A stretch of DNA of 59,012 nt from a bacterium (GTDB taxonomy: Bacteria > Fibrobacterota > Fibrobacteria > UBA11236). The position numbers and the translations under genes were made by a program. The stretch is taken from assembly GCA_900299345.1 (NCBI GenBank), contig OMJM01000076.1:1-59012 (forward strand), in the 5' to 3' direction. Below, piece after piece: positions 13,678 through 18,992 of this stretch. Position 1 is the first letter of the stretch. Each line of letters opens with the position of its first letter. The notes beneath the pieces are model-generated. The model saw nothing but the letters and a program-made list of their open reading frames with translations, searched no databases and was not told where the DNA came from.

Positions 13678-16350
13678 ATGATTCAACGTTACCTTACACG
13701 GCTTGAAAAGCGCGGCGACTTCGTCGGCGCATTGCGCGAGAGTTTTGCGGTAACCGACCCGGCCCAGCGAAACCGCGAGGTCAAAGCCGTGCTCGAAGCA
13801 CAGCGGGAAAAAATCCGGCGTCTGAACCGGGAAGGGGCTTCCGGGGCCGATACTGTCCGTTTCATCAGCGAACTGGCCGACACCTTGCTGCGTGTCATGT
13901 GGGACAGCGTGGAAATGAGCATGCCCGACGATGCCAATCTCGTGGCTTTGGTGGCAGTGGGAGGCTACGGCCGCATGGAGCTTTGCCCCCAAAGCGATAT
14001 TGATCTTCTCATTCTAACGTCTCCCAAACCCGATGGTTATGAAAAGGAACAGGCGGAAATCGTGATCCGCAACCTGTGGGACTTCGGTTTCACAGTCGGC
14101 TCTTCAGTGCGCTCCCTCGATCAATGCAAGGAAGCCTCTTCCAAGGATCCGGAAACGTGGACATCGTTCCTCAACGAGCGCTTTGTGGCTGGAAACCACG
14201 AGCTCTACCGCGAATTCGCAAAGTTGATGACCAAGCGCCAATTGCCTTGGCGTATCAACGCCCTCGTGGCATCCAAGCTTCGGGAACGCGGCGCGCGCAT
14301 GGAAAAGATGGGCGCCCTCATTCAGATGCTGGAACCGGACATCAAGGAGGGGACAGGCTGCCTCCGCGACGTCCATTCCATGATGTGGATTGCCAAGGTC
14401 CGGCATCAGTGCGACACATTCGAAGATCTGGTGCGTGAAGGCCTCATCGATCCCCAGGAGCAGGAAGATCTCCGCGTCGCCTACGACTTCCTGCTGCAGG
14501 TACGCTGCTGCCTCCATTTCCGCACCCAGAAAAAAGACGACCGGCTGAGCTTCGATCATCAACCGGAGATCGCTGCAGAACTGGGTTTCAAGCCGGACGC
14601 TTCCTTCAAGGCCGTGGAAATCTTCCTCAAGGCTTTTTACCACCACACCAAGACCATCTTTCAGGTCGTGGAAGCCGTGATCTCGCGTTGGGAACCTCCT
14701 CCGTCCAGCCGCTGGAAAACAAACCCTCTGCGCCGACATCCCCATTTCACCGCCAAACATCAGGTGATGGACATTTCCACGCGCATTGGAAATCCCTTCC
14801 GGGGGAATCTCGAACTCATCCTCGATTTTTTTGAATTGGCCAACGAGCATCACCTGGGATTCTCCCATCACGCCATTCTCCGCCTGAAGCAGGCCGTCTC
14901 CCTCTTTGCCGGACAGGAAGGCGCCGATTTTTCCTCCGCCCTCCATCGCTTCCTCAAGCTTTGCCAGCGACCCGAACGCGTGGGCCGGATGCTACGCTGC
15001 ATGAACGATGTGGGTTTCATCGGGCTACTCATTCCGGACTTCAACTACATCTACTGCCACAGCCATTACGACAGCTACCACATCTACACCACTGACGAGC
15101 ACACAATTACGGTGGTGCGTCAGCTCGCCTATCTTGCCAAAAGCACGTCCAAGGAGCTGGAATCGTTGCGTCTCGCCCTGAATGAGGTCAAGGATCGCGA
15201 GGTTCTGATCCTATCCTGCTTCTACCACGACATCGGCAAGGGACTCGGCCCGGGACATTCCGTCAGCGGCGCAAAGCTGGTGTTTGCCTTTCTGGAACGC
15301 ATGGGGTTCTCTCCAGCGCGTTGCCTGATCGCCTCGAATCTCGTGTTGCATCACCTTCTGATGAACGATGTCACTCAACGCCGGGATATCGACGATCCGA
15401 AGACCATCCACGACTTCATCACCAAAATCGAGAGTCCTGCCTTCCTGCACAAGCTCTATGTGCTGACTTACTGCGATGTCTCCTCGGTGCACCCCTCCGC
15501 ATGGACTCCCTGGAAAGCCGCACAGCTTCGCCGGCTTTACGAGTTCGCCCTGGAAATGCTCCTGCGTCCCTACCAAAATGCGCAGGCCACGCGTCGTGGT
15601 CCGGAAGAAGAGGCCGTACTGCAAGCACTTTCGCGGGTCTTGCCATCTGAAGAGGCGAAGGCCCATCTCCAAGCCCTGACTGGGAACTACATGGAAGCGC
15701 ATTCCGCCGAGGAAATCGCCCTGCACGCCTCATTGTTTCAATCGCTGGGCGAGGGAAAGTTCGGCGTTTCCATCACTGTAAAGCCCACGCATTGGGAAAT
15801 CACCATTGCCGCTTGGGATGAAACGGCCTTATTGTCCCGTATAGCCGGCGTGCTGGCTCATCTCGGCCTGTCCATCCTCAGCGCCAAGATTTACACGCTG
15901 GGCGGGAACAAGGTTGTGGATCGTTTCTGGGTGTCACCCGTTGGCGAAACGGATATCTCACCAGAAAACTTGAAGATGGCCATTCCACGGGAACTGGAGA
16001 AGGGTTTCCGTCTTGGGCATGGGGAGCTGCGCGAGTTACGCCGCTCCCGCCGTGCCGCGGGCATGGAAGGAAGAGTCCCCGTCGAACCTAACGCCTTGGT
16101 CTCCAACGACATATCCGACACGTTCACCGTGGTGGATATCACCTGCGGCGATCAAATCGGCATCCTGTTCCAAGTCGCGCAGGTCTTCAGCGACATGAAT
16201 GTGAGCATTCACGGCGCGGTGTTGACCACCGAAGCGGACAAGGCGATGGATGCCTTCTACGTCACCGAACGCGACGGCGCAAAGATCCTCGATGCGAATC
16301 GTTGCGATGAGATCGCAAAGACGCTCGAGCGCGAACTCGCATCCGGTTGA
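13678..16350 (+). CDS. glnD: [Protein-PII] uridylyltransferase/uridylyl-removing enzyme
   Basis: An 890-residue bifunctional nitrogen sensor. The nucleotidyltransferase motif GGYGR (95-99) is followed by SDIDLL with Asp107 and Asp109. A GlnE-type helical region follows, then the HD domain CFYHDIGKG with His517 and Asp518. Two ACT domains start near residue 707 (WEITIAAWDETALLSRIAG) and 815 (FTVVDITCGDQIGILFQVA). All catalytic residues for both activities are visible, so it should uridylylate and de-uridylylate PII in response to glutamine. Its ATG immediately follows the mlaE TAA with no gap. No PII or ammonium transporter gene is nearby. Confidence 0.95.
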   Translation: MIQRYLTRLEKRGDFVGALRESFAVTDPAQRNREVKAVLEAQREKIRRLNREGASGADTVRFISELADTLLRVMWDSVEMSMPDDANLVALVAVGGYGRMELCPQSDIDLLILTSPKPDGYEKEQAEIVIRNLWDFGFTVGSSVRSLDQCKEASSKDPETWTSFLNERFVAGNHELYREFAKLMTKRQLPWRINALVASKLRERGARMEKMGALIQMLEPDIKEGTGCLRDVHSMMWIAKVRHQCDTFEDLVREGLIDPQEQEDLRVAYDFLLQVRCCLHFRTQKKDDRLSFDHQPEIAAELGFKPDASFKAVEIFLKAFYHHTKTIFQVVEAVISRWEPPPSSRWKTNPLRRHPHFTAKHQVMDISTRIGNPFRGNLELILDFFELANEHHLGFSHHAILRLKQAVSLFAGQEGADFSSALHRFLKLCQRPERVGRMLRCMNDVGFIGLLIPDFNYIYCHSHYDSYHIYTTDEHTITVVRQLAYLAKSTSKELESLRLALNEVKDREVLILSCFYHDIGKGLGPGHSVSGAKLVFAFLERMGFSPARCLIASNLVLHHLLMNDVTQRRDIDDPKTIHDFITKIESPAFLHKLYVLTYCDVSSVHPSAWTPWKAAQLRRLYEFALEMLLRPYQNAQATRRGPEEEAVLQALSRVLPSEEAKAHLQALTGNYMEAHSAEEIALHASLFQSLGEGKFGVSITVKPTHWEITIAAWDETALLSRIAGVLAHLGLSILSAKIYTLGGNKVVDRFWVSPVGETDISPENLKMAIPRELEKGFRLGHGELRELRRSRRAAGMEGRVPVEPNALVSNDISDTFTVVDITCGDQIGILFQVAQVFSDMNVSIHGAVLTTEADKAMDAFYVTERDGAKILDANRCDEIAKTLERELASG

Positions 16351-16381: not shown

Positions 16382-16410
16382 TTGACTTATCCTGTCAACT
16401 GCTTTATCAT
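16382..16410 (+). promoter_or_regulatory. Sigma-70-type promoter for the 19-residue peptide unit
   Basis: TTGACT at 16382-16387 and TATCAT at 16405-16410 are separated by exactly 17 bp, in an AT-rich gap after glnD. The -35 box also starts a short inverted repeat (TTGAC, 7 bp, GTCAA) that could bind a regulator. Transcription would begin near 16417, leaving a leader of about 195 nt. Confidence 0.6.
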
Positions 16411-16613
16411 TTACTCATTGAATTTGTGTTCGAAGGAAAAGATTGTTGAAGACACACTCCAAATCACCGCGCTTCGTCGCTGCACTAAGCGGAAGCACGA
16501 TCGGTTTTCGCCCAATGAATACGGGCATAAAAACCATTTCATTCACCGTTCAAAACTTTTTTCAACCCACCATTCACTGATAAAAACAAATCCATCCGGA
16601 GGGAGGTGATCAC

Positions 16614-16673
16614 ATGGCCGCCAAGAAGAAAGCTGCAAAGAAGAAAGCTGCAAAGAAAGCTAAGAAGAAGTAA
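16614..16673 (+). CDS. 19-residue Lys/Ala-rich histone-H1-like micropeptide
   Basis: The peptide is almost only Lys and Ala, in repeats of the type KKKAA. It reads MAAKKKAAKKK, then AAKKAKKK, then TAA. Three things make it a convincing gene despite its size. A very strong Shine-Dalgarno (GGAGGGAGGTGAT) ends 3 bp before the ATG, a good promoter lies about 230 bp upstream, and a perfect intrinsic terminator follows the stop by 46 bp. The composition resembles the C-terminal tails of bacterial histone-H1-like proteins, so nucleic-acid binding is plausible but inferred. It could instead be a translated leader, but no gene follows in the same direction. Confidence 0.7.
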   Translation: MAAKKKAAKKKAAKKAKKK

Positions 16674-16719
16674 GCAGCTGCTGATTTGATTCCAATTCGT
16701 TTGGAGTCAATAGGTTAAG

Positions 16720-16749
16720 GGAAGCCCGGACGTCCGGGCTTCCTTTTTT
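16720..16749 (+). terminator. Intrinsic terminator of the micropeptide unit
   Basis: A perfect 24-bp palindrome (GGAAGCCCGGAC and its complement, 16720-16743) is followed directly by six T. It works only for plus-strand transcription, because no T run follows on the other strand. The converging argS gene ends 50 bp further on. Confidence 0.88.
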
Positions 16750-16798: not shown

Positions 16799-18529
16799 TC
16801 ACATGGATTCGATGGCGGGAACTCCGATGAGATCCAGCGCCGAACCCAACACCGACCGGGCCGCGGCGACCAACAACAGCCGCTCCTTCTCCTTGGAAGA
16901 CCCAAGCACACGGCATTCATGGACGAAACGATGCACTCCGTCGGCAATGGACAAAGCGTACTGGGCTAGGGGACAAGGGTCCCGGCTTTCCATTGAAACA
17001 GCCACTTTGTCCGGAAACTGTGCCAAGGTGTCGATCAAATCCACAGCGGAGGCTTCCTTGAGCAACTCCCAACGAATACCCTCCAGCGTCATCGAGGCCA
17101 AAGATGCCGGGCTCAGCCCCGCTTTGCGCAGGATGCTGCACAAGCGGACATGGGCATTCTGGACATAAGGGCCGGAATCCCCCTCAAAGCTCAGGGCTTG
17201 ATCCCATTCAAAGCGAATGTCATTGAGACGACGATTCTTCAATTCGCTGAATACCAAAGCGCCCACAGCAATCTCCATGGCCAACTTTGAATTCCCAGCC
17301 ACTTCAGGATTCTTCTCCGCCATGATCCCGAGGATCTTTTCGCTGGCCGCCTCAAGCACGTCCTTGAGCAGGCTGGCCTGACCGGTGCGGGTTTTTCCCT
17401 TTTCCCAGTTGCCTTCCTCGCTTTTGTGCAGCACGAGTCCGAAAGGGATGTGCTCACATTGTCGGTGCCACTCATTGCCCATGAGTTCCAAGACCTTGAA
17501 CAGTTGCTGGAAATGGAGGCTTTGGCCGTTGTCCACGACGTAGAAGCAGCGGGCAAATCCATATTCAGTGTGGCGGTAAAGAGCGGCCGCGATGTCGCGT
17601 GTGATGTACAAGGTGGAGCCGTCGGATTTGCGGATCAGGGCAGGGGGCATGTCAAAGGCCGAAAGATCGACCACCACAGCTCCCTGACTTTCCTTGAGGA
17701 GGTTTCGCGCCTGCAAGAGCCCCACCACGTCGTCCACACGGTCCGCAAAGAACGCCTCACCCATATAGATATCGAAACCGACGCCCAGAATGGAATAGAG
17801 ACGCTTCAATTCATCCAACGTCACGTCACGGAACACGGACCACAATCGACGGAACCACCCATCACCGGATTCGAGCTGGGCAAATACTCTCCTTGCTTCG
17901 TCTTCAAGACCTGGGTCCTGCTTCGAAGCCGCGTCGAAGGAGCGGTACAGGGCGTTCAGTTTTTCCAGAGTCAGACCGGACAAGTCGGCCTCTCCGAGCC
18001 CTTCGCGGAGAAACATCACAATGAGCTTGCCGTAAGAGGTGCCCCAATCGCCCAGATGATTCACGCGGACAACTTCATAACCACACTTGCGGTAAACCTT
18101 GCTCAGGCTATTGCCGATCATGGTACCACGGAGATGATGAAAAGCGAGTTCCTTACCCATGTTCGGAGAGGAAAAGTCGATAACCGTCCGTTTTCCGGTA
18201 CCCAGGCCATTGTCGCCATAGGCTGCTTCGGAACGGGCGATTTCGGAAAGCACACGGCGTGCGAAATCAGGTTTGTCCACAAAGAAGTTGAGGTAACCGT
18301 TCAACGCTTCGATTTTGGTGAAACCGGGTGGAGGCTGAAGGGTTTTGGCCAACTCCGCTGCAATGGCCGCCGGAGCCTTGCGCAGTGATTTGGCAAGAGG
18401 AAAGCAGGGGAAGGAAAAATCTCCCTGTCCCTCGTGCTGGGGTAAGGTGATGGCGCTTTCCACCGCTTCTAAGGTCAATCCCGTGGCGGGAGCCACCACC
18501 GCAGCGATGTCGCGCTTAAAGGTCGTCAT
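16799..18529 (-). CDS. argS: Arginyl-tRNA synthetase
   Basis: A 576-residue class I synthetase that charges tRNA-Arg. The N-terminal additional domain is seen (GQGDFSFPCFPLAKSLRKAP), then the HIGH-region SSPNMGKELAFHHLRGTMIG, the NHLGDWGTSYGKL block, LYITRDIAAALYR, and the KMSK-region substitute GKTRTGQASLLKDVL. The C-terminal DALR anticodon-binding domain begins near YVQNAHVRLCSILRKAG. The ATG at 18529 overlaps rsfS by 14 bp. An in-frame start at 18700 would add 57 residues read inside rsfS. Many ArgRS lack a canonical KMSKS, so its absence is normal. Confidence 0.95.
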   Translation of the reverse strand: MTTFKRDIAAVVAPATGLTLEAVESAITLPQHEGQGDFSFPCFPLAKSLRKAPAAIAAELAKTLQPPPGFTKIEALNGYLNFFVDKPDFARRVLSEIARSEAAYGDNGLGTGKRTVIDFSSPNMGKELAFHHLRGTMIGNSLSKVYRKCGYEVVRVNHLGDWGTSYGKLIVMFLREGLGEADLSGLTLEKLNALYRSFDAASKQDPGLEDEARRVFAQLESGDGWFRRLWSVFRDVTLDELKRLYSILGVGFDIYMGEAFFADRVDDVVGLLQARNLLKESQGAVVVDLSAFDMPPALIRKSDGSTLYITRDIAAALYRHTEYGFARCFYVVDNGQSLHFQQLFKVLELMGNEWHRQCEHIPFGLVLHKSEEGNWEKGKTRTGQASLLKDVLEAASEKILGIMAEKNPEVAGNSKLAMEIAVGALVFSELKNRRLNDIRFEWDQALSFEGDSGPYVQNAHVRLCSILRKAGLSPASLASMTLEGIRWELLKEASAVDLIDTLAQFPDKVAVSMESRDPCPLAQYALSIADGVHRFVHECRVLGSSKEKERLLLVAAARSVLGSALDLIGVPAIESM

Positions 18530-18992
18530 CCGCGCTTCCGTCGGCCGCAGCGCCGGAATCGGGAAGCGCGTAATCCTCAGCCTTGAGATACATGGACTTG
18601 GCGTCGCCCCACAAGCGTTCCAGTGAGTAGTAATTGCGGGTCTGTTTTTCGAAGATGTGGATGATGAACTCTCCGTAGTCCAACACTGCCCAGCGCACAC
18701 CCGGCATATACTCGGAACGGAGGGCCTTGACCCCCTCGCGGCTCAAGGCGCGTTGAGCTGCGCCGAGGGCGGCGCGCATCTGCGCCTCGTTCTGGCATGT
18801 GCAGATTAGATAGTAGTCCGTCAGCGAACTAAGGCCGCGCAAATCCAGCAGCAGCATGTCCTCTGCCTTGCGGGAGAAAAGGATTCCTGCCGCACGATGC
18901 ACGATGTCCAGCGCCGTGGGTTCAGCCTTGGCTTTGCCGGCTTTGGGCTTGCGCCCGGTTTTCAGTTTGCTTTTTGCTTTTGCCGCGGCCAT
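18516..18992 (-). CDS. rsfS: Ribosomal silencing factor RsfS
   Basis: A 158-residue protein with the RsfS/Iojap core: AEDMLLLDLRGLSSLTDYYLICTC, ALSREGVKALRSEY, WAVLDYGEFIIHIFEKQTRNYYSLERLWGDA. RsfS binds L14 and blocks joining of the subunits under starvation. Residues 1-27 form an unusually basic extension (KAKSKLKTGRKPKAGKAK) not needed by the family, and the C-terminus is acidic. The start overlaps the preceding LytR_C gene by 31 bp, and the stop overlaps argS by 14 bp, so all three are probably cotranscribed. Confidence 0.92.
   Translation of the reverse strand: MAAAKAKSKLKTGRKPKAGKAKAEPTALDIVHRAAGILFSRKAEDMLLLDLRGLSSLTDYYLICTCQNEAQMRAALGAAQRALSREGVKALRSEYMPGVRWAVLDYGEFIIHIFEKQTRNYYSLERLWGDAKSMYLKAEDYALPDSGAAADGSADDDL

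What the first reader, a model, noticed from the sequence alone, without database searches (positions are those of the whole stretch)
16382..16749. Stand-alone transcription unit for a 19-residue Lys/Ala peptide
A near-consensus promoter (TTGACT, 17 bp, TATCAT), a leader of about 195 nt, an extremely strong Shine-Dalgarno, a 19-codon frame of almost only Lys and Ala, and a perfect 24-bp terminator palindrome stand in order between glnD and argS. The peptide resembles the basic tail of H1-like histones reduced to its repeat. Gene callers would miss it because of its size. It could be a minimal nucleoid or RNA-binding peptide, or a highly expressed charge-neutralising factor. The long leader is unexplained and may be regulatory.
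Basis: partly seen in the sequence, partly recalled or inferred. Interest (0 to 1): 0.75.

Follow-up and report, generated by a model that had tools for sequence, protein, structure and literature searches.

The report
Tiny tail-only H1-like peptide gene
This is a real, conserved gene for a 19-residue lysine/alanine peptide, in effect a bacterial "histone H1 tail" with no body and an unusually strong ribosome-binding site; similar tiny peptides sit unannotated across several bacterial phyla and are probably abundant DNA- or polyanion-binding counter-ions.

Summary
The anatomy is: promoter 16382-16410, ~197-nt leader, a 10-nt Shine-Dalgarno match to the 16S rRNA tail (GGAGGTGATC), a 19-codon frame MAAKKKAAKKKAAKKAKKK (16614-16673), and a 24-bp palindromic terminator. 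All nine held family relatives (Fibrobacterota) carry it at the same place (glnD > gene > convergent argS in eight; in the ninth the contig ends before argS). Lengths are 19-42 aa; lysines are kept and changes are mostly synonymous or Ala/Val/Thr swaps. In a sister family the same locus holds an 89/95-aa Lys/Ala/Pro H1-like protein, so the 19-mer is its syntenic short form. The own genome has no HC2-type gene. The gene-specific promoter carries a conserved dyad (TTGAC-N7-GTCAA). The leader is a covarying structure in the sister genus; only one hairpin loop reaches the window's genus. Comparable stand-alone Lys/Ala peptides occur in Eisenbacteria, Patescibacteria, Verrucomicrobiota and others. 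In Eisenbacteria 14 of 16 have a 9-12-nt Shine-Dalgarno match (background mode 4); this is not universal. In two Fibrobacterota genomes the same stretch is the tail of a SWIB-domain protein. Best reading: an abundant minimal H1-like polycation binding DNA. Expression and binding are untested.

The parts
16382..16410 (+). promoter: TTGACT-17-TATCAT
   Evidence: same layout in all 9 relatives, one copy per genome
16382..16398 (.). conserved dyad TTGAC-N7-GTCAA overlapping -35 and spacer; candidate operator
   Evidence: present in 10/10 family genomes and only at this locus; absent from the sister-family promoters; function inferred
16417..16613 (+). leader, about 197 nt (transcription start inferred from the promoter)
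   Evidence: structured in the sister genus (z -6.6; 89% of cells paired); window leader itself z -1.6
16502..16535 (+). leader hairpin with conserved loop CCAATRAANACGG
   Evidence: loop conserved in all 10 genomes (alignment A2); unique in own genome
16598..16611 (+). extended Shine-Dalgarno; GGAGGTGATC (16602-16611) matches 10 nt of the 16S rRNA tail complement
   Evidence: background max 7 of 57 frames; conserved in all relatives
16614..16673 (+). 19-codon frame MAAKKKAAKKKAAKKAKKK, TAA
   Evidence: coding conservation
16686..16710 (+). hairpin between stop codon and terminator
   Evidence: fold; hairpin also present in relatives with different sequence
16717..16749 (+). intrinsic terminator, 24-bp palindrome 16720-16743 plus T6
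   Evidence: terminator hairpins at same place in relatives
13678..16350 (+). glnD (PII uridylyltransferase), upstream syntenic marker
   Evidence: Pfam GlnD_UR_UTase 5e-36; synteny
16799..18700 (-). argS, convergent downstream marker, so no gene follows the peptide in its direction
   Evidence: Pfam tRNA-synt_1d 1e-78; synteny

Best explanation
A complete monocistronic gene for a minimal H1-like polycation. Shown by sequence comparison: a conserved promoter, leader, extended Shine-Dalgarno, Lys/Ala frame and terminator form one unit that is kept at one locus; the product is a charge-patterned (KKAA)n peptide of +11 to +21; it is the syntenic short counterpart of an 89/95-aa H1-like protein. 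Inferred: the near-complete pairing with the 16S rRNA tail gives very frequent initiation, so the peptide accumulates to high copy; like the free C-terminal tail of H1/HC2/AlgP it binds DNA (and possibly RNA) by charge, neutralises backbone phosphates and helps compact the nucleoid. Inferred: synthesis is adjusted at two points, by a gene-specific factor on the TTGAC-N7-GTCAA dyad and by the leader.
For: Same unit in 10/10 family genomes, between glnD and argS. Coding-type change: 61 synonymous against 35 non-synonymous codon differences in the sister genus, where about 21-33% synonymous is expected, and every K kept. Length varies in whole codons 19/21/27/28/42. Sister family has an 89/95-aa K/A/P protein at the same locus, weakly HC2-like. 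No HC2-type gene elsewhere in the own genome. The same MAAKKK stretch is the N-terminal tail of SWIB-domain proteins in the same phylum (SWIB E 6e-30, 1e-26). Stand-alone K/A peptides recur in several phyla, with 9-12-nt SD matches in 14 of 16 Eisenbacteria cases found without any SD requirement. Literature: KPAA-repeat peptides and the AlgP tail bind DNA in vitro (PMC9239181); HC2 length varies by lysine-rich pentamers (PMC2848022).
Against: No expression, localisation or binding data. No family model recognises the short peptides. A low-complexity polycation would bind any polyanion, so DNA is not singled out by sequence. In Patescibacteria most comparable peptides have ordinary or no SD, so high expression is not a general rule. 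The direction of length change (long to short) is not established; sister family and window differ by a factor of five in length.
Confidence: 0.62

Rival explanations
1. The peptide is real and abundant but its partner is another polyanion: polyphosphate granules, ribosomal RNA or the ribosome, rather than DNA.
For: AlgP, an H1-like K/A/P-tailed protein, associates with polyphosphate granules and spaces them (PMC9239181). The extended Shine-Dalgarno implies very many ribosome encounters.
Against: SWIB-domain proteins in the same phylum carry the same tail, which points to chromatin. No polyphosphate or ribosomal-protein gene lies directly beside it in the Fibrobacterota locus.
Confidence: 0.22
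2. The functional product is the ~330-nt RNA (a small regulatory RNA or a cis element that titrates 16S rRNA tails); the frame is incidental.
For: Leader of the sister genus is strongly structured (z -6.6); 10-nt complementarity to the 16S tail.
Against: Frame shows coding-type change and whole-codon length changes. The leader differs between genera (model R1 does not reach the window's genus), while the peptide is kept. No known RNA family at its threshold.
Confidence: 0.06
3. Remnant: a decaying H1-like gene shortened by repeat loss, with no function left.
For: Long form in the sister family, no gene at all in the same-order genome G010; repeats shrink and grow easily.
Against: Kept in 10/10 family genomes with an SD stronger than that of the long form (GGAGGTGATC against GGAGGAG), conserved promoter dyad and purifying change.
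Confidence: 0.04
4. Leader or attenuator peptide whose translation controls a downstream gene by lysine or alanine supply.
For: Short Lys/Ala-rich frame followed by a terminator resembles attenuator layout.
Against: The next gene, argS, is convergent in the window and in every relative whose contig reaches it; nothing follows in the same direction.
Confidence: 0.02

Closest known systems
Chlamydial histone H1-like protein HC2 (Pfam PF07382)
   Same: Lys/Ala-rich repeats, length varies by whole repeats; long Fibrobacterota forms match the HC2 model weakly to above its cut-off.
   Different: 165-237 aa in Chlamydia trachomatis (PMC2848022) against 19 aa; short forms are not recognised by the model.
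AlgP / PhaF of Pseudomonas (KPAA-repeat tails)
   Same: Tail of K/A(/P) repeats; such peptides bind DNA in vitro (PMC9239181).
   Different: AlgP has a 124-aa N-terminal domain and a 195-aa tail; the peptide here has no other domain and no proline.
SWIB-domain proteins with a Lys/Ala N-terminal tail (Fibrobacterota, L200, L215)
   Same: Same MAAKKK.. beginning and Lys/Ala tail.
   Different: The tail is fused to a SWIB domain; in the window it stands alone.
Eisenbacteria, Verrucomicrobiota, Patescibacteria and Rokubacteria stand-alone Lys/Ala frames
   Same: Stand-alone MAAKKK.. peptides, many with a terminator hairpin behind them; many with 9-12-nt SD.
   Different: Different neighbours, different leaders and 3' elements; common ancestry not shown (convergence possible).

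Membership tests
HC2 histone H1-like nucleoprotein (PF07382) | profile match above the curated cut-off | tested here: not met
   no family for relatives of 21-42 aa (the 19-mer itself is too short to scan); syntenic 95-aa form 21 bits against cut-off 40; some f3 forms pass it
HC2 histone H1-like nucleoprotein (PF07382) | Lys/Ala-rich repeat composition without acidic residues | tested here: met
   11 K of 19, no D/E; all relatives alike
HC2 histone H1-like nucleoprotein (PF07382) | DNA binding and nucleoid condensation | not testable with these tools
   needs binding assay or microscopy
AlgP/PhaF type | N-terminal globular or helical domain before the repeat tail | tested here: not met
   frame is 19 codons from ATG to stop, with no other domain
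SWIB/MDM2 domain protein | SWIB domain (PF02201) | tested here: not met
   only the tail-bearing relatives L200, L215 have it
known structured RNA or riboswitch leader | Rfam match at gathering score | tested here: not met
   no match at gathering score at this locus; permissive searches of the locus and of eight relatives gave only sub-threshold matches
stand-alone small-protein gene | own promoter, SD, frame with coding-type conservation, terminator | tested here: met
stand-alone small-protein gene | detected transcript and peptide | not testable with these tools
   no expression data available

The most novel reading that the evidence does not exclude
A hidden, cross-phylum class of tail-only H1-like micropeptides (about 12-60 aa, MA[A/T]KKK.., often with near-complete pairing to the 16S rRNA tail) acts as genetically encoded, regulated polyamine-like counter-ions of the bacterial nucleoid, and has been missed because gene finders discard frames of this size.
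Probability: 0.35. Interest if true: 0.8.

Novelty: new variant of a known kind. Interest (0 to 1): 0.62.

Why it matters
H1-like tails in bacteria are known as parts of larger proteins. A conserved gene that makes only the tail, in as few as 12-19 residues and with exceptional ribosome-binding sites, would show that charge alone is enough for a selected chromatin (or polyanion) function and would give a very simple test object. It also shows that a recurrent class of genes lies below the size limit of routine annotation in poorly studied phyla.

Tried and rejected
Pfam and NCBIfam scans of the short peptides: nothing meaningful. Rfam at permissive threshold: only sub-threshold terminator-like or chance matches. 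A covariance model of the sister-genus leader does not hit the window's genus or the sister family, so a single shared leader RNA is not claimed. Idea of a regulon sharing the promoter dyad: rejected, the combination occurs only at this locus. Viral origin or carriage: no viral contig holds the pattern. Attenuator or leader peptide: rejected because argS is convergent. Universal extended SD: rejected, most Patescibacteria cases lack it. A small ATG frame inside the window's leader (starting in CCAATGAAT) is not general, since eight of ten genomes read CCAATAA there. Literature searches found no description of stand-alone Lys/Ala micropeptides of this kind in the held open-access library; subscription papers are not held.

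Full report
OBSERVATION. The rest is not: no Lys/Ala frame appeared in 30 Markov copies of the window, the ten-base Shine-Dalgarno match stands alone against 57 long frames of the window, the best of which reaches seven, and the 3' region folds with z -5.5.

CONSERVATION. A DNA search with the unit found it in all nine held family relatives. A pattern of GGAGGTGAT, a short gap and ATG-Ala-x-Lys-Lys-Lys occurs exactly once in each of the ten family genomes and in none of 116 other class genomes. Contigs of the same sizes in a named collection are titled Fibrobacteres or Fibrobacteria bacterium, so the host is an uncultured Fibrobacterota lineage. glnD lies upstream in all, and convergent argS downstream in all whose contig is long enough. 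Peptides are 19, 21, 28 and 42 aa in the window's genus and 27-28 aa in the sister genus. In the sister genus codon positions 1, 2 and 3 differ 0, 35 and 82 times in pairwise comparison, 61 codon differences are synonymous and 35 not, where random change would give about 21-33% synonymous; lysines never change there. This is purifying selection on a translated product.

RELATION TO LONGER PROTEINS. In two genomes of a sister family the gene between glnD and argS encodes an 89- or 95-aa Lys/Ala/Pro protein with a similar promoter but an ordinary GGAGGAG site; the 95-aa form matches HC2 weakly (21 bits, cut-off 40). The same-order genome G010 has nothing between glnD and argS. Fibrobacteraceae-like genomes, in which no glnD match was found, carry 88-108-aa (PAAKK)n proteins elsewhere, some above the HC2 cut-off. 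The own genome has no HC2-type match. In other classes of the phylum there are stand-alone frames of 19, 24, 40 and 56 aa, and two proteins in which the same MAAKKK stretch is the N-terminal tail of a SWIB domain (E 6e-30 and 1e-26). That the 19-mer is the short counterpart of the long protein at the same locus is supported by synteny; the direction of change is inference.

REGULATORY PARTS. The promoter holds a dyad TTGAC-N7-GTCAA over the -35 box and spacer in all ten family genomes, and the combination occurs nowhere else in them: a candidate operator specific to this gene. The sister-genus leader is a covarying three-helix structure (alignment energy z -6.6 with 0/300 column shuffles; 89% of cells paired against 44% or less when slid). 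In the window's genus only the third hairpin with its loop CCAATRAANACGG is shared; a model of the sister-genus leader does not match it, and the window leader alone folds no better than shuffles (z -1.6). No Rfam family fits.

BREADTH. In 84,980 species the SD-plus-frame pattern has 41 hits, 40 of them stand-alone Lys/Ala frames of 12-81 aa in Fibrobacterota, Eisenbacteria, Patescibacteria, Verrucomicrobiota, Rokubacteria and single members of other phyla. Because that pattern demands the SD, it was dropped for four phylum scans. Eisenbacteria: 16 of 47 genomes, 16 stand-alone frames of 17-22 aa, 14 of them with 9-12-nt SD matches against a background mode of 4 (one of the 16 is the genome used as the seed). 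Patescibacteria: 16 of 380 genomes, 14 stand-alone frames of 18-58 aa, but only three with 9 nt or more, one of them the seed. Verrucomicrobiota: 18 of 289 genomes, a continuum of 16-235 aa with mostly strong SD. Fibrobacterota: as above. Neighbours are conserved within some phyla and differ between phyla, so common descent across phyla is not shown.

MECHANISM. Shown: a conserved, complete small-protein gene whose product is a patterned polycation. Inferred from established knowledge of H1-like tails, whose KPAA-repeat peptides bind DNA in vitro (PMC9239181), and of HC2, whose length varies by lysine-rich pentamers (PMC2848022): it binds DNA by charge at high copy and helps compact the nucleoid. 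Extended SD pairing is a documented initiation mode in Staphylococcus aureus (PMC13009471), where it guides start-codon selection; that it means very high output here is inference. Polyphosphate or RNA as the partner is the main rival, since AlgP spaces polyphosphate granules (PMC9239181).

VERDICT. It is a tail-only variant of H1-like proteins, not a member of the HC2 or AlgP families as defined. Confidence that it is a real coding gene is about 0.95 (my estimate); that DNA is the main target about 0.6.

Noticed in passing
L135 / L142 (Rokubacteria): Two 13-aa MAAKKKAAKKKKK frames in tandem, each with its own strong Shine-Dalgarno.
   Followed up: no
L133, L146-L157 (Eisenbacteria): A conserved 3' element GGACCTGGCACGTCC (slightly varied) lies between the stop codon and the terminator of the Lys/Ala frames.
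   Followed up: no
L183, L184 (Verrucomicrobiota): Element AAATGGCAGTCGCCAC.., with an inverted copy GTGGCGACTGCCATTT in L184, downstream of the Lys/Ala genes; a similar AATGGCAGTCGCCACGG stretch follows the 81-aa frame of L138.
   Followed up: no
L158-L162 (Patescibacteria): Shared GGAGACTAG motif directly before Lys/Ala frames instead of an extended SD.
   Followed up: no
window 18516-18992 (-): RsfS homologue begins with a Lys/Ala-rich extension (MAAAKAKSKLKTGRKPKAGKAKAEP).
   Followed up: no
L095, L096 (sister family): The leader of the 89/95-aa form has its own hairpin with compensatory change (GATCCTG/CAGGATC against GATCCCG/CGGGATC).
   Followed up: partly
L200, L215 (other Fibrobacterota classes): SWIB-domain proteins with Lys/Ala N-terminal tails.
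   Followed up: partly
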